Assembly: GCA_029287455.1 (NCBI GenBank)
Contig: JARFRB010000116.1
Span: 1-64,000 of the forward strand
Length of the DNA stretch: 64,000 nucleotides
DNA from: Pelagibius litoralis
GTDB lineage: Bacteria; Pseudomonadota; Alphaproteobacteria; Kiloniellales; DSM-21159
Direction: 5' to 3'
The position numbers were made by a program, and so were the translations under genes. Positions 46,923 to 56,368 of this stretch are shown piece by piece; position 1 is the stretch's first letter; every line of letters begins with the position of its first letter. The notes beneath the pieces were generated by a model, which was not told the DNA's origin, made no database searches, and worked only from the letters and a program-made list of their open reading frames with translations.

Positions 46923-46951
46923 GAGTGAATTTAGGGTCCGGCACCAACAAC

Positions 46952-47029
46952 CTCTGGATTGCCACGCTACGCTCGCAATGACGAACAAGAAACGACGTCA
47001 TTGCGAGCCGAAGGTGAAGCAATCCAGAG
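46952..47029. repeat. REP-like palindrome pair, copy 3
   Basis: CTCTGGATTGC (46952-46962) is mirrored by GCAATCCAGAG (47019-47029), an 11-bp perfect outer arm. Inside, GCTCGCAATGACG faces CGTCATTGCGAGC, so two repeat units stand head to head. It separates the convergent mutL and dimethylglycine dehydrogenase-like genes. Confidence 0.85.
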
Positions 47030-47052
47030 TTTGTTTGTGCCCCTGAAGCCCC

Positions 47053-49494
47053 TCACTCCGCGGCCACGAGCCCGCGCATGATGGCGCCCTTGGGGTCGAA
47101 CAGGGGCTCGGAGCGGGGCTGGGCGGGCAGACGGTCGCCGAGCAATTCGATCTCCCAGCCGTCTTGCGCGTCGGCGAGGTCCTTCGGCACATAGCCCAGC
47201 GCCACCGAGACGCCGGAAGCATGGGCATATCCGCCGGAGGTGACCCAGCCCTTGACCAGACCGTTGTGCCAGATGGGTTCGTCGCCGATCACGTCGGCAT
47301 CCTTGGCCTCCAGCACGAAGGTCTTGAGGGTCAGCGCCCCGCCCTCTTCCCGCTCGCGGGCGGCGGCGTCCTTGCCGATGAAGTCCGCGTTCTTGGTCAG
47401 CGACACGAAGCGGCCGAGGCCTGCCTCGTAGGGGCCGTAGATCGGGCGGTACTCGCGCGCCCAGCTGCCGTAGCTCTTCTCCAGTCTGAGGGCGTTGAGG
47501 GCGCGGCCGCCGAAAAGCCGGATGCCGTGGGGCTCGCCCGCTTCCATCAGCTTGTCGAAGAGCGTGCGCTGGTATTCCGGCTTGCACCAGATCTCATATC
47601 CCACGTCGCCGGTGTAGCTCACGCGGCCGACTATAGCCGGCGTCATGCCCAGGTCCATCTCGCGGATTGCCATGAAGGGAAAGGCCGCGTCGGACATGTC
47701 CTCGTCCGTGATCGCGGCCAGGACCGCCCGCGCCTTCGGCCCGGCAACCGTCAGGCCGACGAGCCCCAGCCCCAGGGCCTCTACCCGCACCTCGCCGCTC
47801 TCCGGCAAGTGCTCCTCGAACCAGCGCATGTGATAGGCCTCGGCGATGCCGGAGCCGACGATCATGAAGGTGTCGTCGCCCAGGTTGGACAAGGTGAAGT
47901 CGCCGATCAGCTTGCCGTCGTGCTTTAGCATGGGGGCCAGCGTCATCCGCCCTTCCGAGGGGATCTTGCAGGCCAAGATGCCGTCGAGCCACTCCCGGGC
48001 GCCGGGGCCGGTGATCCGGTATTTGGCGAAGCTGGAGATCTCCCCCAGGCCCACGCCTTCGCGCACCGCCCGGGCCTCCGCGCCGACATGCTCGAAATCG
48101 GTGGACCGGCGCCAGGAGAACTCGTCCTTGACGCCCTCCGGCGCGAACCACAGCGGCACCTCCAGCCCGTAGGCTGCGCCGAACTGGGCGCCGGCCGCCT
48201 TCAGCTTGTCGTAGACAGGTGTCGTCTTATGGGGGCGGCCGGCCTGCAGCTCCTCGTTGGGGAAGCGGATCGAGAAGCGGCGGGAATAGTTCTCGCGCAC
48301 CGTGGCGTTGGTGTAGGCCATGGTGGTCCAATCGCCGAAGCGGCCGATGTCCATGGCCCAGATGTCGAAGCCCGGGTCGCCGTTGACGATCCAGTTGGCG
48401 AGCGCCAGGCCGACGCCGCCACCCTGACTGAACCCGGCCATCACCCCACAGGCGCACCAGAAGCCGGTGAGGCCCCTGACCGGCCCGACCAAGGGGTTGC
48501 CGTCAGGTGCGAAGGTGAAGGGCCCATTGATGATCTGCTTGATTCCAGCGTTCTGAAAGGCGGGGAAATGGGTGAAGCCCACCTCGAGCGAGGGCGCGAT
48601 GCGGTCGATGTCCGGGGGCAGCAGCTCATGGCCGAACTCCCAAGGTGTCGTCTTCTCCGACCAGGGCACGCAAGCCTTCTCGTAAGTGCCCATCAGCATG
48701 CCGCCGCGCTCCTGGCGCAGGTAGAGCTCGCCGTCGAAGTCGACCACGTGGATCACTTCCTTGCCGGTGCGCTGGTTGACCTCGGCCACTTCCGGCATGT
48801 CCTCGGTGATGAGGTACATGTGCTCCATGGCAAGCACCGGCAGCTCCAAGCCGACCATGCGGCCGACCTCGCGCGCCCAGAGACCGCCTGCGTTGACCAC
48901 GTGCTCGGCCTTGACCTCGCCCTTGTCGGTGATCACCCGCCAGGTGCCGTCCGGGTTCTGGGAGAGGGCCTCGACCTTGGTGTTGCGCTCGATCTGGGCG
49001 CCTAGCTTGCGCGCCGACTTGGCGTAGGCATGGGTGGTGCCCGAGGGGTCGAGGTGCCCATCCACCACGGTCCTGAGCGCGCCGACGAAGCAATTGGGAT
49101 CGAGGAGCGGCATAAGCTCGTGCGCTTCCTCGGCGCTGATCACCTCCGCCTCGATGCCCAGATAGCGGCCCTTCGCGACCAAGCTCTTCAGCCAGTCGAA
49201 GCGCGGTTGGGTCGCCGCCAGCATGACGCCGCCGGTGATGTGCAGCCCGGTGGACTGCTCCGACAGCTCCTCGATCTCCTTGTAGAGATTGATAGTGTAT
49301 TGCTGCAGCTTGGCAACGTTCGGATCGCCGTTGATGGTGTGCATGCCGCCGGCGGCGTGCCAGGTGGACCCGGAGGTCAGCTCCGAGCGCTCGAGCAGCA
49401 GGGCGTCCGTCATGCCGAACTTGGCGAGGTGATAGAGAACGGAGCAGCCAACGACGCCGCCTCCGATAACGACAACCTGAGCCTCTGTCTTCAT
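47053..49494 (-). CDS. Dimethylglycine/sarcosine dehydrogenase-like FAD and folate enzyme
   Basis: An 813-aa protein with DAO, FAO_M, GCV_T and GCV_T C-terminal domains in order. The FAD motif is VVVIGGGVVGCSVLYHLA (residues 7-24). His46 in SGSTWHAAGG is the position of the covalent flavin link in dimethylglycine dehydrogenase. The C-terminal half (about 430-813) is the aminomethyltransferase-like tetrahydrofolate domain, including VGYEIWCKPEYQ and GGRALNALRLEKSYGSW. The expected reaction is oxidative N-demethylation with transfer of the one-carbon unit to folate. Dimethylglycine, sarcosine and related N-methyl amines cannot be told apart by eye. The gene lies 47 nt after the mttB-like gene on the same strand. 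Confidence 0.9.
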   Translation of the reverse strand: MKTEAQVVVIGGGVVGCSVLYHLAKFGMTDALLLERSELTSGSTWHAAGGMHTINGDPNVAKLQQYTINLYKEIEELSEQSTGLHITGGVMLAATQPRFDWLKSLVAKGRYLGIEAEVISAEEAHELMPLLDPNCFVGALRTVVDGHLDPSGTTHAYAKSARKLGAQIERNTKVEALSQNPDGTWRVITDKGEVKAEHVVNAGGLWAREVGRMVGLELPVLAMEHMYLITEDMPEVAEVNQRTGKEVIHVVDFDGELYLRQERGGMLMGTYEKACVPWSEKTTPWEFGHELLPPDIDRIAPSLEVGFTHFPAFQNAGIKQIINGPFTFAPDGNPLVGPVRGLTGFWCACGVMAGFSQGGGVGLALANWIVNGDPGFDIWAMDIGRFGDWTTMAYTNATVRENYSRRFSIRFPNEELQAGRPHKTTPVYDKLKAAGAQFGAAYGLEVPLWFAPEGVKDEFSWRRSTDFEHVGAEARAVREGVGLGEISSFAKYRITGPGAREWLDGILACKIPSEGRMTLAPMLKHDGKLIGDFTLSNLGDDTFMIVGSGIAEAYHMRWFEEHLPESGEVRVEALGLGLVGLTVAGPKARAVLAAITDEDMSDAAFPFMAIREMDLGMTPAIVGRVSYTGDVGYEIWCKPEYQRTLFDKLMEAGEPHGIRLFGGRALNALRLEKSYGSWAREYRPIYGPYEAGLGRFVSLTKNADFIGKDAAAREREEGGALTLKTFVLEAKDADVIGDEPIWHNGLVKGWVTSGGYAHASGVSVALGYVPKDLADAQDGWEIELLGDRLPAQPRSEPLFDPKGAIMRGLVAAE

Positions 49495-49541
49495 GGTAGT
49501 CCTATCTCTCGTCTCTTGGGGTGCTAAGTGGGGAAATACCG

Positions 49542-51101
49542 CTAGGGTTCGTTACCGCCGATGGCTTCCTTGCGCTTGGCGATATAGGCGTCGATGGCCT
49601 CCAGCCGGTCTTTGGCCAGGGGCGGTGCCTCGTAGGATTCCAGCGTCGATTGCCAGATCTCGGTGGCGCGCTCGGTCGCAGTCTTGGCGCCGGCGAGCTG
49701 CCAGTTTTCGCTGTTCTGCCAGTCACTCAGAATGGGTTCGTAGAAGGCGCCGCGATAGCGCTCCATGGTGTGCGCGCAGCCGAAGAAATGCCCGCCCGGC
49801 GCGATCTCTCGGTGGGCATCCAGGCCAAGCTCGGCCTCGTTCACGACGATGGGCTGGAAGAGTTCCGACATCGCCTGCAGGCACTCCACATCGATCACGA
49901 TCTTCTCGAAGGAGGCGACGAGCCCGCCCTCCAGCCAGCCGGCCGCGTGATAGGTCACGTTCCCGTGGCCCATGACGGCCCCCCAGAGCGCGAACTGGGT
50001 CTCATAGACCGCCTGGGCATCGGCGGCGTTGGAGGCGTTGCAGGCGCTGGTGCGGTAGGGCAGGCCATAGCGCCGGGCGAACTGCCCGCCCGCCATGTTG
50101 GCCTTGGCGTTCTCCGGCGTGCCGAAAGCCGGTGCGCCCGAGCGCATGTCAACGTTCGAGGTGAAGCCGCCGTAGACCACCGGCGCGCCCGGGCGGACCA
50201 ACTGCGTCAAGGCGATCCCAAGCAGGGCTTCGGCGTTTTGCTGCGCCAGGGCCGCGGCCATGGACACGGGGGTCATCGCGCCCATCAGGGTGAAGGGGGT
50301 GACGATGACGGCCTGTCCCAGCTCCGCCATCTGCATGGCGCCGTCCGCCATGGCGTCGTCGAGCTTGCGCGGCGAGTTCACGTTGATGTTGGTGATGGCC
50401 GAGGGGCTTGCCGCCAGGTCCTCGATATCCAGGCCGCGTGCGATCGCCAGGAGCTCTATGGAGTCGCGCACCCGCCCGGCTCCGATGGAGACGCTATGGA
50501 AAATCTTGTCCGTGTAGATCAGGTTCGCGCGATAGGTATCGAGATGGCGCGTGTTGGCGGGCAGGTCGATGGGCGCAAGGGCCTGGTTGCCCAGAAAATG
50601 AACGATGTTGAAGCTTTGGGCCAGCTTCACCAGCTCGCAATAGTCGGCGAAGTTGCCGGGCCGCCGGCCTCTCACGCGGTCGTGTACGTTGGGCGGGCCG
50701 GAGACGAAGCCGAAGTTCACGTTGTTGCCGCCCAGCACCAGGGCTCGCTCCGGGTTGCGCGGGGTCAGCGCGAAGCTACTCGGCGCGGTCGAGATGAGAT
50801 CCAGGATAAGGCCGCGGTCGATCCGCACGATACCGCTCGCCTCGTCGACCTCGGCCCCGGCTGCGCGGAACAGCGCGCGCGCCTGGCCGCTCATCACCTC
50901 GATGCCGAATTCCTCGAGAATGCTCAGGGAGGCGAGGTGGATTTCCTCAACCTGATCGGCCGAAAGCGGCTCCATGGGCGGGAAGGGGTTGGCGAGCCGG
51001 CGCCAGGGAAGCTGTTTCGGGCCAGGTGCCTCGGCGGGTTCCTGCCGCGCTTGCCGCCGCCGCCGCCCGCGGGTCTCCTTGCGCTCGCTGGCCAGGGTCA
51101 C
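49542..51101 (-). CDS. Trimethylamine methyltransferase family protein, non-pyrrolysine MttB homologue
   Basis: A 519-aa TIM-barrel protein of the MttB/COG5598 superfamily. Typical segments are HLASLSILEEFGIEV, FGFVSGPPNVHDRV, PGAPVVYGGFTSNVDMRSG and HAAGWLEGGLVASFEK. There is no in-frame amber codon, so it is a non-pyrrolysine member, the group that includes glycine betaine:corrinoid methyltransferases. No corrinoid protein or reactivase is encoded in the window. GTG 51101 has AGAGGAG ten bases upstream; ATG 51128 is an alternative start. Adjacent dimethylglycine dehydrogenase suggests methylated-amine or betaine catabolism. The methyl acceptor is unknown. Confidence 0.88.
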   Translation of the reverse strand: MTLASERKETRGRRRRQARQEPAEAPGPKQLPWRRLANPFPPMEPLSADQVEEIHLASLSILEEFGIEVMSGQARALFRAAGAEVDEASGIVRIDRGLILDLISTAPSSFALTPRNPERALVLGGNNVNFGFVSGPPNVHDRVRGRRPGNFADYCELVKLAQSFNIVHFLGNQALAPIDLPANTRHLDTYRANLIYTDKIFHSVSIGAGRVRDSIELLAIARGLDIEDLAASPSAITNINVNSPRKLDDAMADGAMQMAELGQAVIVTPFTLMGAMTPVSMAAALAQQNAEALLGIALTQLVRPGAPVVYGGFTSNVDMRSGAPAFGTPENAKANMAGGQFARRYGLPYRTSACNASNAADAQAVYETQFALWGAVMGHGNVTYHAAGWLEGGLVASFEKIVIDVECLQAMSELFQPIVVNEAELGLDAHREIAPGGHFFGCAHTMERYRGAFYEPILSDWQNSENWQLAGAKTATERATEIWQSTLESYEAPPLAKDRLEAIDAYIAKRKEAIGGNEP

Positions 51102-51261
51102 GTGACAAGATCTCCTCTTCTTGCGCATCCGCTTGGATTTAGCGGACGCGGGGATGAAGAAGAAGCTAAGGCGCCCGCCCCCCCCGTATCAGCGCCCGCT
51201 CGACCTGGACTGGGCTGAAAGCGACATTTGTCCAGATCTCGCCATTGCTGGGGACGGGAGG

Positions 51262-52701
51262 CTACGCGAGCGTGTAGGCGGTTTTCACGGTGGTATAGAA
51301 CTCTGCCGCGTAGCGCCCTTGCTCGCGCGGGCCGTAGCTCGACGCCTTCCGTCCACCGAAGGGGACATGATAATCAACCCCGGCGGTGGGCAGGTTGACC
51401 ATGGTCATGCCGGCCTCGGAATGGCGCTTGAAGTGGGTCGCGTGCTTCAGGCTGGTGGTGCAGATGCCCGCCGAAAGGCCAAAAGCGGTGTCGTTGGCAA
51501 CCGCCAGGGCTTCCTCGTAGTCGCGCACCTTGATGACCGACGCGACCGGCCCGAAAACCTCCTCGCGGTTGATCCGCATGGTGTTGTCGGTCTCCGTGAT
51601 CAGCGCGGGCTCCAGATAGAACCCCGGTGTCTCGCGCTGCAACCGCGCGCCGCCATAGGCGAGCTTGCCGTTCTCCTTGGTGGCGATTTCAAGATAGCTC
51701 AGGTCCTGATCAAGTTGGCCTTGATCGACCACCGGCCCGATTTGCACGCCCGGCTTCAAGGCATCGTCGATAATCAAGCCGCTAAGCTTTTCCGTGACGG
51801 ACGCCACGAAACGGTCGTGAATGCCTTCGGTGACGATCAGCCGCGACGAGGCGGTGCAGCGCTGCCCCGTGGAGAAGTAGGCGCCGTTGACCGCGCAGTC
51901 AGTGGCGATCGCTAGGTCGGCGTCGTCCAGCACCACAAGCGGGTTCTTGCCGCCCATCTCAAGTTGAAATTTTGCCATGCGGGCGACGCAAGCGGCGGCG
52001 ACTTGGCGGCCGGTCGCGACCGAGCCGGTGAAGGTGATGGCATCCACTTCCGGACTGTCGAGCAGGGCTTGCCCGACCACCGAGCCGCGCCCCATCACCA
52101 GATTGAAGACGCCCTCGGGCAGGCCGGAGCGGGAGATGATGTCCGCCAAGGCCCAGGCGCAACCGGGCGTGGTGTCCGCCGGCTTCAGGACCACGGCGTT
52201 GCCATAGCAAAGGGCCGGCGCGACTTTCCAGGCGGGAATGGCGATGGGGAAATTCCAGGGCGTGATGACGCCAACCACGCCGACCGGCTCGCGCGTCACC
52301 TCGACGCCGATGCCTGGGCGCACCGAAGGCAGCACCTCGCCCGCCAGCCGCAAGGCCTCGCCGGCGAAGAAGGCGAAGACTTGTCCCGCCCGCGCGGCCT
52401 CGCCGATCCCCTCCGGCAGCGTCTTGCCTTCCTCGCGCGAAAGCAGGCGCCCCAGTTCCTCCTTGCGGGCGAGGGTTTCGTCGGAGATGGCCTTCAGGAC
52501 CTCGTAACGCTGCTGCGGGCCGGAGTGCGCCCAAGTGGCGGCGGCGGCCCGCGCTGCTTCGATGGCGCGCTGGGCCTGGGCATCATCGCCGCGCGCGTAG
52601 TAGCCGATGATCTCGTCGGTGTTGGAGGGGTTGATGTTGGCGGCCGACTCGGCGCCTTCGACCCAGACACCGTCAATGAAGTTATTGTGCAAATCGCTCA
52701 T
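51262..52701 (-). CDS. NAD(P)-dependent aldehyde dehydrogenase (2-oxoglutarate semialdehyde dehydrogenase-like)
   Basis: A 479-aa aldehyde dehydrogenase. Asn150 in TPWNFPIAIP, Glu248 in LEMGGKNP and catalytic Cys282 in STGQRCTASSR are in place. The overall pattern (for example MVNLPTAGVDYHVPFGGRKAS near the end, spanning about residues 440-460) recalls alpha-ketoglutaric semialdehyde dehydrogenases of sugar-acid pathways. The position directly downstream of uronate dehydrogenase and lactonase genes supports that role. Broad-specificity aldehyde or betaine aldehyde oxidation is an alternative given the downstream methylated-amine genes. Confidence 0.87.
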   Translation of the reverse strand: MSDLHNNFIDGVWVEGAESAANINPSNTDEIIGYYARGDDAQAQRAIEAARAAAATWAHSGPQQRYEVLKAISDETLARKEELGRLLSREEGKTLPEGIGEAARAGQVFAFFAGEALRLAGEVLPSVRPGIGVEVTREPVGVVGVITPWNFPIAIPAWKVAPALCYGNAVVLKPADTTPGCAWALADIISRSGLPEGVFNLVMGRGSVVGQALLDSPEVDAITFTGSVATGRQVAAACVARMAKFQLEMGGKNPLVVLDDADLAIATDCAVNGAYFSTGQRCTASSRLIVTEGIHDRFVASVTEKLSGLIIDDALKPGVQIGPVVDQGQLDQDLSYLEIATKENGKLAYGGARLQRETPGFYLEPALITETDNTMRINREEVFGPVASVIKVRDYEEALAVANDTAFGLSAGICTTSLKHATHFKRHSEAGMTMVNLPTAGVDYHVPFGGRKASSYGPREQGRYAAEFYTTVKTAYTLA

Positions 52702-52753
52702 GCTTCGCTCCCTTCGCGGCGCCGGGTTTGCCGGAGCCCGGTTTTCCTAGGCG

Positions 52754-53548
52754 TCAATCCTCGAAGTGCCCGCGCGCGGCGAAGCCGCCGCCTTGATAGA
52801 TCGTCGCGGCGTCGTTCTTGTCCTCGGGCGGGAATTTGGCCTCGACGGCGGCGCGGAAGATTTCGGAGCTGTCCTGAGGGGTCCAGCCCAGGAAGGCCGC
52901 GTGGTCGTTATTCCACCAGGTCTCCCGGTTCGCCGAGACGCCGTAGAGGATCAGGTGCCCGGTCACCGGCGCGTCGAATACCGCCCTTACCATCGAGACA
53001 AAATCGCGCGGGCTGAGCCAGGTCGAAAGCATCCGGCGATCCTTGGGCTCGGGAAAGCAGGAGCCGATGCGCACGCAGACCGATTCCACGGCGAACTTGT
53101 CGTAGTAGTAGCTCGCCAGCGCCTCGCCGTAGCACTTGGTCAGCCCGTAGAGGCTGTCGGGGCGCTGGGTGGAGCTGTCATCCAGGCGCTCCGTCCGTTT
53201 GTGGAACCCGATGGCGTGGTTGGAGCTGGCGAAGAGCACGCGCGGCCCCCCCGCCTGTCTGGCGGCCTCGTAAAGATTATAGGTGCCAAGCAAATTTGCG
53301 CTCAGGAGATCGTCGAAAGCGGCCTCGATGGAGATGCCGCCGAGGTGCACGATGCCGTCGCAGTCCTTGACAAGATCGATCACTGCCTCCCGATCCGCGA
53401 GATCGCAGGGAACCACTTCCTCCCCCGCCCTCGCCGGCTCCATCTCGGCGACATCGGAAAGGCGCAGGACTTCGGCATAGCCCGCGAGCCCTTCGCGCAG
53501 AATGCCGCCGAGCCCTCCGGCGGCACCTGTAATGAGCAGTCTTCGCAT
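52754..53548 (-). CDS. udh: Uronate dehydrogenase-like NAD-dependent sugar dehydrogenase
   Basis: A 264-aa extended SDR. The Rossmann motif LLITGAAGGLGGIL is at residues 4-17, the family-specific SSNHAIGFHKRTERL follows, and YGLTKCYGEALASYY carries the catalytic Tyr and Lys. The sequence closely follows bacterial uronate dehydrogenases, which oxidise galacturonate or glucuronate to the aldaro-lactone. ATG 53548 has GGGAGGAG upstream; the longer open frame is a shadow of the lactonase gene. It starts 13 nt after the lactonase stop, a natural pathway partner. Confidence 0.87.
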   Translation of the reverse strand: MRRLLITGAAGGLGGILREGLAGYAEVLRLSDVAEMEPARAGEEVVPCDLADREAVIDLVKDCDGIVHLGGISIEAAFDDLLSANLLGTYNLYEAARQAGGPRVLFASSNHAIGFHKRTERLDDSSTQRPDSLYGLTKCYGEALASYYYDKFAVESVCVRIGSCFPEPKDRRMLSTWLSPRDFVSMVRAVFDAPVTGHLILYGVSANRETWWNNDHAAFLGWTPQDSSEIFRAAVEAKFPPEDKNDAATIYQGGGFAARGHFED

Positions 53549-53561
53549 CTTCTCCTCCCTG

Positions 53562-54449
53562 TCAGCCTTGATCCAGGAACCGCGTGATGGGAGCACCGGC
53601 GACTTCAGTCCGTGCGACCAGCACCGATCCCGACTCCGGGTAGGCGGCGACCCTCTCGGCGCTGACGCCATCGGTTAGCGAGGTGAGCACCAAGGTCCGC
53701 CCGTCGGCCCCGCCGAAGCAGGGCATGGTCGGCGCGGGCACCGGCAGTTCAAAAAACTCGATGAGCTCTCCATCCGGTGAGAAGCGGTTCAAGCGGCCCG
53801 CCGAGACGCCGCAGCTCCAGTAGCAACCCTCCGCATCCATGGCCGCGCCGTCTGGCCGCCCGATAGTGTCGTCAAGCTTCAGAAAACTTCGGCGCCCCGA
53901 AACCGCGCCGCTCGCCGGGTCGAAATCCCAGGCATCAACCCATGCGCCCGTTGAATCCGAATGGTACATGGTCCGGCCATCCGGGCTCCAGGCAAGGCCG
54001 TTGGAGACGTGCAGGCCCTCCGCCTTTTTCTCGACGCCGCCCGAGGCGGTGACCCGGTAGAGCGCGCCGATCGGGCGGCGCTCCTTGCGATCGTGCATGG
54101 TGCCGACCCAGAACGCACCGTCAGGACCGACCTTGCCGTCGTTGGTGCGGGTTTCCTCCTCGTCCGGCTCGATCTCGGCGAGCAGGTCCAAGGTGCCGCT
54201 CTCCCGGTCAAAGAGGTGGACAGCGTTGCGCAAGGCGACCACCAAGCGGCCGCTCTCCGCGAGGCCGAAGGACCCGATGGTGGGCGGCAGGTTCCAGACT
54301 TGCGCGCCGGCGCCGTGCTCGTCCATCTCGGTGATGGTCCCATCCAAGATATCGCACCACAGGAACTTGCCAGACCGGTCGTCCCAGACCGGAGATTCGG
54401 CAAGCCGGTAGGGTGCCCTATGCAGGCGGTGAAGATCGTGCAGCGGCAA
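53562..54449 (-). CDS. SMP-30/gluconolactonase family sugar lactonase
   Basis: A 295-aa six-bladed beta-propeller. The metal site is formed by Glu in LAESPVWDDRSG, Asn in TRTNDGKVGPDG, Asn in HVSNGLAWSPDG and Asp in GRPDGAAMDAEG, all present. GALYRV and CGVSAGRLNRFSPDG are also typical. It should open an aldono- or aldaro-lactone, matching the product of the uronate dehydrogenase next to it. It is the first gene of the minus-strand run and is divergent from the IlvD/EDD dehydratase. Confidence 0.9.
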   Translation of the reverse strand: MPLHDLHRLHRAPYRLAESPVWDDRSGKFLWCDILDGTITEMDEHGAGAQVWNLPPTIGSFGLAESGRLVVALRNAVHLFDRESGTLDLLAEIEPDEEETRTNDGKVGPDGAFWVGTMHDRKERRPIGALYRVTASGGVEKKAEGLHVSNGLAWSPDGRTMYHSDSTGAWVDAWDFDPASGAVSGRRSFLKLDDTIGRPDGAAMDAEGCYWSCGVSAGRLNRFSPDGELIEFFELPVPAPTMPCFGGADGRTLVLTSLTDGVSAERVAAYPESGSVLVARTEVAGAPITRFLDQG

Positions 54450-54557: not shown

Positions 54558-54640
54558 AAGCCCTCGTTGGAATGCGATAGTCCCTTGCTGGGCGAAGATA
54601 ACACTCGGTGCGAGAACAACATTTGGCGGGGGAGGAACCC

Positions 54641-56368
54641 ATGTCGGGCCGCAAGACGCCGGAGAGTCTAAGGAGCCACCGCTGGTTCGGGGCCGAGGAT
54701 CTGCGGGCCTTCGGGCATCGCTCCCGGGCCTTGCAAATGGGCTACGAGCGGCAGGATTTTCTCGGTAAGCCGGTGATCGCCATTATAAACACGTGGAGCG
54801 ACATAAACCCCTGCCATGCTCACTTCCGCACCCGCGCCGAGGAGGTCAAGCGGGGGGTCTGGCAGGCGGGCGGATTCCCCCTGGAGCTCCCGGCCCTCTC
54901 GCTTGCCGAGACCTACGTCAAGCCGACCACAATGCTCTACCGGAATTTCCTGGCCATGGAGGTCGAGGAGCTGCTGCGCTCCCACCCCATCGACGGGGTT
55001 GTTCTGCTGGGCGGCTGCGACAAGACCACGCCCGGCACCATCATGGGCGCCATCAGCATGGACCTGCCGACGGTGTTCTTGCCGGCGGGGCCGATGCTGC
55101 GCGGCAATTGGAACGGCGAGGTCCTCGGCTCGGGCAGCGACGTCTGGAAGTACTGGGCGGACAAGCAGGCCGGGCGCATCGGCGAGGCGGAATGGCACGA
55201 AATGGAAGCCGGGATCGCGCGCTCCTTCGGCACCTGCATGACCATGGGCACTGCTGCGACCATGACGGCACTAGCGGATACGCTGGGGCTCTGCCTACCG
55301 GGCAGCTCCTCCATCCCCGCGCCGGACTCCGGGCATTCGCGCATGGCTTCGGCTTGCGGGCGCCGGATCGTGGAGATGGTCTGGGAGGACCTCAAGCCCT
55401 CGGATATCCTGACCCGGGAGTCCTTCGAGAACGCGCTGACCGTGCATATGGCCATGGCGGGCTCGACCAATGCCATGGTGCATCTCGTCGCCATGGCCAA
55501 GCGTGCCGGAGTGCCGCTCACCCTCGACGACTTCGACGCCTTTGCGCGCAAGATACCTGTGTTGGCGAACGTCCGGCCCTCGGGTGCCTATCTGATGGAG
55601 GATTTCTACTACGCCGGTGGATTGCGGGCGCTGCAGAACGTTTTGGCGCCCCATCTGCATGGGCACTGCAAGACAGTCGCCGGGATCACGCTGGGCCAAT
55701 CCTTCGCGGGCGCCGAGGTCTTCAACGGCGACGTCATCCGCTCGCTCGACAACCCCATCGGGGCCACCAGCGGCACGGCGATCCTGCGCGGCAACCTGGC
55801 GCCCGACGGCTGCGTGATGAAACCGGCCGCCGCCGACCCGCGCTTCCTGAAGCACAGTGGCCCGGCCTTGGTCTTCCGGACCTACGACGACATGGCGGCG
55901 GTCATGGAGGACGAAAGCCTGGACGTGACACCGGACAGTGTCTTGATCCTGCAGAACGCCGGGCCGGTCGGTGGTCCCGGCATGCCGGAGTGGGGCATGC
56001 TGCCGATCCCGCGCAAGCTTTTGAAGGCGGGGGTGAGGGATATGCTGCGCATTTCGGACGCCCGCATGTCGGGCACCAGCTATGGCGCTTGCGTGCTGCA
56101 CGTCTCGCCGGAAAGCCATATTGGCGGACCCTTGGCGGCGGTGCGCACGGGCGACCGTGTCTCCGTCGATGTGGAGGCCCGGTCCATCAGCGTCGACTTG
56201 AGCGACGAGGAGATCGCCGAGCGGCTGAAGAGCTGGTCGCCGCCTGACCGGGATTATCCGCGCGGCTACAACCGGCTCTTCGGCCAACACATACGTCAGG
56301 CCCACGAGGGCTGCGATTTCGATTTCCTGGAAGGGACCGAGCGGCTGCCCGAGCCGGAAATCCACTAA
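54641..56368 (+). CDS. IlvD/EDD family sugar-acid dehydratase (L-arabonate dehydratase-like)
   Basis: A 575-aa Fe-S dehydratase. The cluster ligands are Cys58 (NPCHAHF), Cys126 (GGCDKTTPG) and Cys199 (FGTCMTMGT), with Lys128 as the modified lysine and the catalytic Ser in [12 protein letters not shown]. This spacing matches the [2Fe-2S] aldonate dehydratases such as L-arabonate and D-xylonate dehydratase rather than branched-chain DHAD. The opening [20 protein letters not shown] is also characteristic. ATG 54641 has GGGGGAGG five bases before it; the longer frame from 54608 lacks one. The expected reaction is an aldonate to a 2-keto-3-deoxy acid. Confidence 0.92.

What the first reader, a model, noticed from the sequence alone, without database searches (positions are those of the whole stretch)
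47053..51101. Non-pyrrolysine MttB homologue next to a dimethylglycine dehydrogenase in an apparent aerobe
Non-Pyl MttB proteins with known function transfer methyl groups from betaines to a corrinoid protein, mostly in anaerobes. Here the gene sits 47 nt from a folate-dependent demethylase and no corrinoid protein is nearby. A stepwise demethylation, betaine to dimethylglycine to sarcosine with one-carbon units passed to folate, is a plausible but little-described aerobic route.
Basis: inference. Interest (0 to 1): 0.6.

Follow-up and report, generated by a model that had tools for sequence, protein, structure and literature searches.

The report
Aerobic betaine-demethylating gene pair
Two neighbouring genes look like one of several entry points through which this air-breathing bacterium strips methyl groups from betaine-type osmolytes with a vitamin B12 protein encoded elsewhere in its genome; the general route was published in 2025, and which betaine this pair uses is still open.

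Summary
In detail: a non-pyrrolysine MttB homologue (49542-51101/51128, minus strand) lies 47 nt upstream of a dimethylglycine-dehydrogenase(DMGDH)-type gene (47053-49494). No B12-binding domain was found on this contig, but contig C130 carries the core: corrinoid protein, DUF1638, weakly MetF-like protein, methyl-THF:corrinoid methyltransferase and RamA-type reactivase. The genome has eight MttB homologues, four beside DMGDH-type genes. In 19 related genomes 40 of 103 mttB genes lie within 5 kb of a DMGDH-type gene (about 2 expected), mostly other paralogues. Corrinoid protein and reactivase occur in 51 and 49 of 54 mttB-positive genomes and in 0 of 4 negative ones. This fits the aerobic MtgBCD route of Ruegeria pomeroyi (PNAS 2025; MtgC and MtgD proven by mutants), so the route is not new. 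This copy is probably not the genome's main glycine-betaine enzyme: paralogue C28 groups with S. meliloti 4YYC and keeps predicted Tyr94; the window copy has Ser. Its clade is uncharacterised; substrate unknown, a betaine other than glycine betaine favoured. Against a dedicated pair: relatives of this DMGDH occur in all four mttB-free genomes, and 26 of 30 named MttB relatives lack it nearby.

The parts
49542..51101 (-). Non-pyrrolysine MttB-superfamily protein (PF06253), 519 aa from GTG 51101 (528 aa from ATG 51128); proposed betaine:corrinoid methyltransferase
   Evidence: 663.7 bits; 4yyc 340 bits; MtgB 2qne/9yce 272 bits; no in-frame stop; AGGAG before GTG 51101; tree, pocket residues
47053..49494 (-). 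Dimethylglycine-dehydrogenase-type flavoprotein with tetrahydrofolate domain, 813 aa; proposed N-demethylation of the tertiary-amine product to methylene-THF
   Evidence: DAO, FAO_M, GCV_T, GCV_T_C; mammalian DMGDH E 7e-178; residues aligned with 1pj5 His225 and Tyr259 are His and Tyr; their catalytic roles are recalled
49495..49541 (-). 47-nt spacer between the two genes; no terminator-like site found in it
51262..52701 (-). Aldehyde dehydrogenase (nearest model alpha-ketoglutaric semialdehyde dehydrogenase, 517 bits, below its 770 cut-off); same strand, 133-160 nt upstream of mttB; not beside the pair in G020
   Evidence: a weak terminator-like site at 51181-51168 lies in the gap (1 found, 4.6 expected in shuffles)
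52754..53671 (-). NAD-dependent epimerase/dehydrogenase-family protein, 52 nt from the aldehyde dehydrogenase; probably sugar-acid metabolism
46940..47041 (.). Palindromic repeat downstream of the pair (23-nt arms 91% complementary; inner 13-nt arms 100%); possible 3' boundary

Best explanation
The pair is one of several substrate-specific entry modules of an aerobic, B12-dependent betaine-demethylation pathway. The MttB homologue takes a methyl group from a quaternary amine that carries a carboxylate (a betaine) and gives it to Co(I) of a shared corrinoid protein encoded on contig C130. An MtgD-like enzyme passes it to tetrahydrofolate, a MetF-like protein oxidises methyl-THF, and a RamA-type protein with DUF1638 re-reduces the corrinoid. 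The DMGDH-type flavoenzyme next door then oxidises an N-methyl of the tertiary-amine product to methylene-THF. Shown here: gene identities, the core elsewhere in the genome, co-occurrence, co-localisation of the two families across relatives. Inferred: methyl transfer by this copy, partner choice, co-transcription, substrate. Substrate, given this model: a betaine other than glycine betaine (proline betaine or another bulky betaine) about 0.6; glycine betaine about 0.3; not a betaine about 0.1.
For: Core cluster on C130 in one run: corrinoid protein (B12-binding_2 + B12-binding, DxHxxG at 115; best NCBIfam model MtgC, 206 bits, below its cut-off of 370), DUF1638, a 108-aa protein, a weakly MetF-like protein (22.1 bits, cut-off 24), MtgD-like (374 bits, cut-off 259), RamA-type (RACo domains over cut-off in Pfam; NCBIfam AcsV 405 and RamA 104 bits, both below cut-off); an MtgE-like gene on C28 (482 bits, cut-off 338). 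8 MttB homologues with one RamA. mttB/DMGDH-type co-localisation 40 of 103 vs 2.07 expected, in 16 of 19 genomes. Corrinoid protein in 51 of 54 mttB-positive and 0 of 4 mttB-negative genomes, RamA in 49 of 54 and 0 of 4. The pair recurs in G020 (72%/81%) and four Rhizobiaceae/Hyphomicrobiales loci (63-65%/75-77%). Residues equivalent to MtgB Asn199, Arg309 and His345 are kept. OpuAC-type betaine importers lie by two clade members (Shinella plasmid, G053). Precedents: PMC12478193; one corrinoid protein serving several MttB homologues in E. limosum (PMC8604678, passages).
Against: No expression or activity data. The pair is not universal: of 30 named loci with close relatives of the window MttB, 4 have the DMGDH orthologue beside it (some of the other 26 contigs are short), and of 7 loci opened in unnamed relatives 1 has it (G020) and 1 a 42% one about 5.4 kb away. 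Of the 40 co-localised mttB genes only two (window, G020) are of the window type;'s scores 14 are top-scoring (773 bits or more, C28-like), 8 intermediate and 18 low-scoring (under 440 bits, C31a-like; hand split). Relatives of the window DMGDH (59-65%) occur in all four mttB-free genomes, and of 15 genomes opened around it only G020 has mttB adjacent, so it may be a general DMG dehydrogenase. The rhizobial pair members differ in the pocket (Ala94, Ser199), so the substrate may not be shared across the clade. The pocket rests on a published docking model. 4yyc and C28 also lack Phe353.
Confidence: 0.72

Rival explanations
1. The copy is itself a glycine betaine methyltransferase (aerobic MtgB), and the pair performs glycine betaine to dimethylglycine to sarcosine.
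For: The partner is a full DMGDH homologue. A 64-65% relative in mttB-free G018 sits with a Rieske oxygenase (best model GbcA, 132 bits, below the 670 cut-off), an OpuAC betaine-binding protein and a GcvT/DmdA-like protein, as if mttB were there replaced by a glycine-betaine oxygenase. Arg309, His345 and Asn199 are kept.
Against: Predicted Tyr94 is Ser and Phe353 is Gly. Another paralogue (C28) keeps Tyr94, groups with S. meliloti 4yyc (SH-aLRT 96) and lies near an MtgE-like gene and its own DMGDH-type gene. The window copy is in a different clade (quick tree, no bootstrap).
Confidence: 0.25
2. The MttB homologue belongs to a larger operon with the upstream aldehyde dehydrogenase and epimerase-family gene and handles hydroxyproline betaine or a sugar-acid-linked compound, with alpha-ketoglutaric semialdehyde as an intermediate.
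For: Same strand, short gaps (52 and 133-160 nt), and the ALDH's nearest model is alpha-ketoglutaric semialdehyde dehydrogenase.
Against: The ALDH and epimerase genes are not beside the pair in G020 and gave no match near the four rhizobial pairs. They fit sugar-acid breakdown together with the divergent L-arabinonate-dehydratase-type gene (1018 bits, cut-off 882). The ALDH is below its model's cut-off.
Confidence: 0.08
3. Neighbourhood by chance: the MttB homologue has drifted to another role and has no methyltransferase activity.
For: The family is large and mostly untested, and members lie in many contexts. The divergent C31a paralogue has lost Asn199, Arg309 and His345.
Against: 40 of 103 co-localised versus 2.07 expected; the window copy keeps the three pocket residues; presence of the family tracks the corrinoid core.
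Confidence: 0.05

Closest known systems
MtgBCD(E) of Ruegeria pomeroyi DSS-3 (PMC12478193, 2025)
   Same: Aerobe; pfam06253 proteins, separate corrinoid protein MtgC, pterin enzyme MtgD, MetF-like protein, RamA and DUF1638; later demethylation genes often near mtgBCD; several pfam06253 ORFs in some genomes
   Different: In R. pomeroyi the genes are not co-located, here C130 holds one core cluster. In that paper 108 of 156 MtgBCD genomes lack MetH; here a MetH-like B12 region lies at a contig edge (not tested further). The window MttB was not compared directly with SPO2108/SPO2134, whose sequences were not at hand
MtgB of Desulfitobacterium hafniense (2qne, 9yce)
   Same: Same superfamily; Asn199, Arg309 and His345 kept
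   Different: Outside its branch in the tree; predicted Tyr94 and Phe353 not kept; from an anaerobe
S. meliloti MttB-family protein 4yyc
   Same: Closest solved structure (340 bits)
   Different: Groups with the C28 paralogue, not with the window copy
E. limosum MtpB / MtcB / MtyB with shared MtqC, MtqA and RamQ (PMC8604678, passages)
   Same: Several MttB homologues feeding one corrinoid protein and one THF methyltransferase
   Different: Anaerobic acetogen; no DMGDH in the passages I saw; sequences not compared
Mammalian dimethylglycine dehydrogenase (4p9s, 5l46) and DMG oxidase (1pj5)
   Same: Near full-length homology, same domain order, His225/Tyr259 equivalents kept
   Different: Substrate of the window enzyme untested

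Membership tests
MttB superfamily (PF06253 / COG5598) | Full-length PF06253 match over the curated cut-off | tested here: met
   663.7 bits vs 25
Pyrrolysine MttB (trimethylamine methyltransferase) | In-frame amber codon at the Pyl site; TIGR02369 over its cut-off | tested here: not met
   no stop inside; gap at the Pyl column; 292.7 bits vs 525
MtgB (glycine betaine methyltransferase) | Predicted pocket Tyr94, Asn199, Arg309, His345, Phe/Tyr353 | tested here: not met
   Ser, Asn, Arg, His, Gly; pocket as predicted by docking in PMC6855144 (passages)
MtgB (glycine betaine methyltransferase) | Groups with a characterised MtgB | tested here: not met
   2qne lies outside the 56-row set that holds the window copy; SPO2108/SPO2134 could not be included
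MtgB (glycine betaine methyltransferase) | Methylates corrinoid from glycine betaine | not testable with these tools
   needs protein assay
Aerobic MtgBCD-type system | Corrinoid protein, MtgD-like, MetF-like, RamA and DUF1638 in the genome | tested here: met
   MetF-like only 22.1 bits (cut-off 24) in Pfam; corrinoid and RamA models of NCBIfam below cut-off
Aerobic MtgBCD-type system | Direct sequence match to R. pomeroyi SPO2160/SPO1863 | not tested
   sequences not at hand in a named form
Dimethylglycine dehydrogenase | FAD domain + FAO_M + GCV_T + GCV_T_C; near full-length homology | tested here: met
Dimethylglycine dehydrogenase | Oxidises dimethylglycine rather than another N-methyl amine | not testable with these tools
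   needs assay

The most novel reading that the evidence does not exclude
The window MttB clade is an untested betaine:corrinoid methyltransferase of aerobes with a substrate other than glycine betaine, such as proline betaine, working through the common MtgC core, with a partner flavoenzyme that demethylates the tertiary-amine product into the folate pool.
Probability: 0.5. Interest if true: 0.5.

Novelty: new member of a known kind. Interest (0 to 1): 0.36.

Why it matters
It adds a lineage to the aerobic, B12-dependent demethylation of betaines: the 58 genomes searched carry 0 to 14 MttB homologues each, mostly with one corrinoid core. If each copy has its own betaine, these genomes hold an aerobic counterpart of the E. 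limosum toolkit, and the substrate of each copy becomes a testable question.

Tried and rejected
Pyrrolysine MttB: rejected (no amber codon, low TIGR02369 score).

Hydroxyproline-betaine epimerase (HpbD) as a substrate clue: enolase-family racemases lie by several relatives, but the four I tested have their best matches in different entries: 2ps2 (L055), 2pgw (S. meliloti, L094), 4dye/2oqh (L095) and 3vc5 (L103). For the L055 protein, entries 4e8g, 2pmq and 4h2h, which I recall as HpbD, score only 188 to 171 bits. No firm clue.

Opp-like importer as Prb (proline betaine transporter): four rhizobial loci carry an Opp-like set upstream of the pair (shared clusters; domains tested in L080). That Prb is Opp-like I read only in a reference title in PMC11337228 (passages). 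The Prb paper is not held. For the L080 ATPase 76 of 790 matching plasmid records are Sinorhizobium, but none is among the 20 listed, and I opened none. Left as a lead.

A dedicated DMGDH partner: weakened. Larger operon with ALDH and epimerase: not conserved. Promoter and terminator scans gave 1 site each, not above shuffles.

Literature on aerobic MttB-type demethylation or an mttB-DMGDH pair: (no paper). Going by titles and abstract starts, PMC12478193 is the one that treats it; other listed papers, such as PMC12482172 and PMC9999580, I did not open.
Full report
What is there. The two genes are real and placed as described. The MttB-family ORF is 49542-51128 on the minus strand, with a likelier GTG start at 51101 preceded by AGGAG; the DMGDH-type ORF is 47053-49494; 47 nt separate them. 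The first is a full-length PF06253 protein without in-frame stops; the second has the DAO, FAO_M, GCV_T and GCV_T_C domains and matches mammalian DMGDH nearly end to end. On the same strand upstream are an aldehyde dehydrogenase and an epimerase-family gene. These are not beside the pair in the closest relative, G020.

The corrinoid partner. The genome (3.63 Mb, 141 contigs, 96% complete) has 8 PF06253 proteins, 5 B12-binding matches, none on the window's contig, and 1 RACo/RamA match. Contig C130 carries, on one strand and in close order, a 240-aa corrinoid protein with both B12 domains and a DxHxxG motif, DUF1638, a 108-aa Virulence_fact-family protein, a weakly MetF-like protein (22.1 bits, cut-off 24), a pterin-binding methyl-THF:corrinoid methyltransferase, the RamA-type protein and an HD protein. 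The corrinoid protein's best NCBIfam models include the two MtgC models and MtbC, all below cut-off; the RamA-type protein is below the NCBIfam cut-offs but over the Pfam ones; the pterin enzyme passes its cut-off. An MtgE-like gene (model betaine-homocysteine methyltransferase) lies by another mttB on C28. Two COX1-family oxidases support aerobic respiration.

Is the neighbourhood chance? Within this genome 4 of 8 mttB genes have a DMGDH-type neighbour. For a wider test I took 19 of the 58 genomes, picked by hand for assembly quality and for having at least one mttB: 40 of 103 mttB genes lie within 5 kb of a FAO_M (DMGDH-type) gene, 2.07 expected from random placement, in 16 of 19 genomes; 21 of the 40 have one on the same strand. 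The genomes are related, so the Poisson value (7e-37) is not a true probability. A hand split of the 40 by the scores gives 14 top-scoring (C28-like), 8 intermediate and 18 low-scoring (C31a-like) genes; only two, the window's and G020's, are of the window type. The association is thus one of the two families in several paralogues, not mainly of this pair. The corrinoid protein (81-100% identical, one copy partial) is in 51 of 54 mttB-positive and 0 of 4 mttB-negative genomes, and RamA (one copy partial) in 49 of 54 and 0 of 4. Three of the four negatives are one genus, so this is about two independent absences.

Which betaine? A quick tree (SH-aLRT only) of 60 of 79 collected proteins (19 fragments or near duplicates dropped) puts the window copy in a 28-row clade (100), with the G020 copy next to it (97), rhizobial copies and gammaproteobacterial copies. 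The C28 paralogue groups with S. meliloti 4yyc (96), and D. hafniense MtgB lies outside; several rows are long. Of the pocket residues predicted by docking for MtgB (PMC6855144, passages), the window copy keeps Asn199, Arg309 and His345 but has Ser for Tyr94 and Gly for Phe353. Tyr94 is kept in 5 of 79 rows (2qne, 4yyc, C28, C31c, L103), Arg309 in 76 and His345 in 75. The rhizobial pair members have Ala94 and Ser199. A carboxylated quaternary amine is therefore likely, glycine betaine is better served by C28, and the substrate need not be the same across the clade.

Gene contexts. The window-type pair recurs in G020 and in four Rhizobiaceae/Hyphomicrobiales loci with an Opp-like importer upstream, its domains tested in one of them. 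It was not seen in the other 26 of the 30 named loci (several contigs are short). Of 7 loci opened in unnamed relatives, 1 has it (G020) and 1 (G016) a 42% DMGDH-type gene about 5.4 kb away. Of eight plasmid loci that I opened from the 94 records with an mttB match, seven have a DMGDH-type gene within 3.4 kb, in L099 split over two ORFs; the eighth, L097, has an untested FAD oxidoreductase about 8.3 kb away. Two further opened loci (L102, L103) were found through DMGDH matches and are not counted; L095 was first opened through a DMGDH match but is also on the mttB list. Clade members or more distant relatives lie by OpuAC-type betaine importers (Shinella plasmid, G053), sarcosine-oxidase-type subunits, hydantoinases, Asp/Glu-racemase-type genes, M24 peptidases and enolase-family racemases. 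These point to betaine-like or cyclic nitrogen compounds but do not name one.

Results against a dedicated pair. The window DMGDH has 59-65% relatives in all four mttB-free genomes. In G018 it sits with a Rieske oxygenase whose best model is GbcA (below cut-off), an OpuAC protein and a GcvT/DmdA-like protein. In six genomes of one genus (G043, G045, G047, G050, G054, G055) it sits by what reads as a TRAP-transporter set, tested with Pfam only in G054. Of 15 genomes opened around it, one has mttB adjacent (G020); a Rieske relative was sought by BLAST in the 12 loci and not found, and not sought in G013 and G053; the G011 copy runs off its contig and was not drawn. This suits a general DMG-type dehydrogenase that is recruited next to different first-step demethylases. 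That reading keeps glycine betaine alive as the substrate (about 0.3).

Relation to print. PMC12478193 (abstract, Results part 1 of 2, sub-section 7 and Discussion read) shows by mutants that R. pomeroyi needs MtgC and MtgD for glycine betaine growth and methionine synthesis, names pfam06253 proteins as MtgB on proteomics and homology, reports later demethylation genes near mtgBCD, and notes up to seven pfam06253 ORFs in some genomes. The finding is thus a further case of a published aerobic route, with an uncharacterised paralogue as the open part. PMC8604678 (passages) gives the precedent of several MttB homologues sharing one corrinoid protein.

Noticed in passing
window 46940-47041; G000:C1:78763-78794, C58:17424-17455, C87:925-956, C88:8494-8525: A palindromic repeat between mutL and the DMGDH-type gene; its core (CGTCATTGCGAGC....G..GAAGCAATCCAG) occurs 5 times in the genome, 0 times for the reversed control.
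   Followed up: partly
L110 9527-16313 (genome G018, no mttB): A DMGDH relative in a cluster with a Rieske oxygenase (best model GbcA, below cut-off), OpuAC-type protein and a GcvT/DmdA-like protein: a possible oxygenase counterpart of the mttB route.
   Followed up: partly
L068, L072, L079: In three proteobacterial MAG loci the window-type mttB follows a gene that reads as an aminotransferase (by sight); L072 and L079 also carry a PreT-like gene (cluster with L080's) and L079 a PreA-type one, as in reductive pyrimidine breakdown. PreT-like genes also lie near rhizobial copies.
   Followed up: partly
L015 7546-11399 (G000:C130): Hydantoinase A/B-type genes (best models caprolactamase subunits, below cut-off) directly upstream of the corrinoid cluster; hydantoinase pairs also lie by mttB in G053 and roseobacter plasmids.
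   Followed up: partly
G000 contig C31 (16968-18458, 83162-84637): Two very divergent MttB paralogues outside the MtgB-like set; the first is beside two tandem DMGDH-type genes and has Cys, Gly and Glu in place of Asn199, Arg309 and His345.
   Followed up: no
window 54608-56368 and 51262-53671: L-arabinonate-dehydratase-type gene divergent from the aldehyde dehydrogenase and epimerase-family genes: probably a sugar-acid pathway flanking the pair.
   Followed up: no
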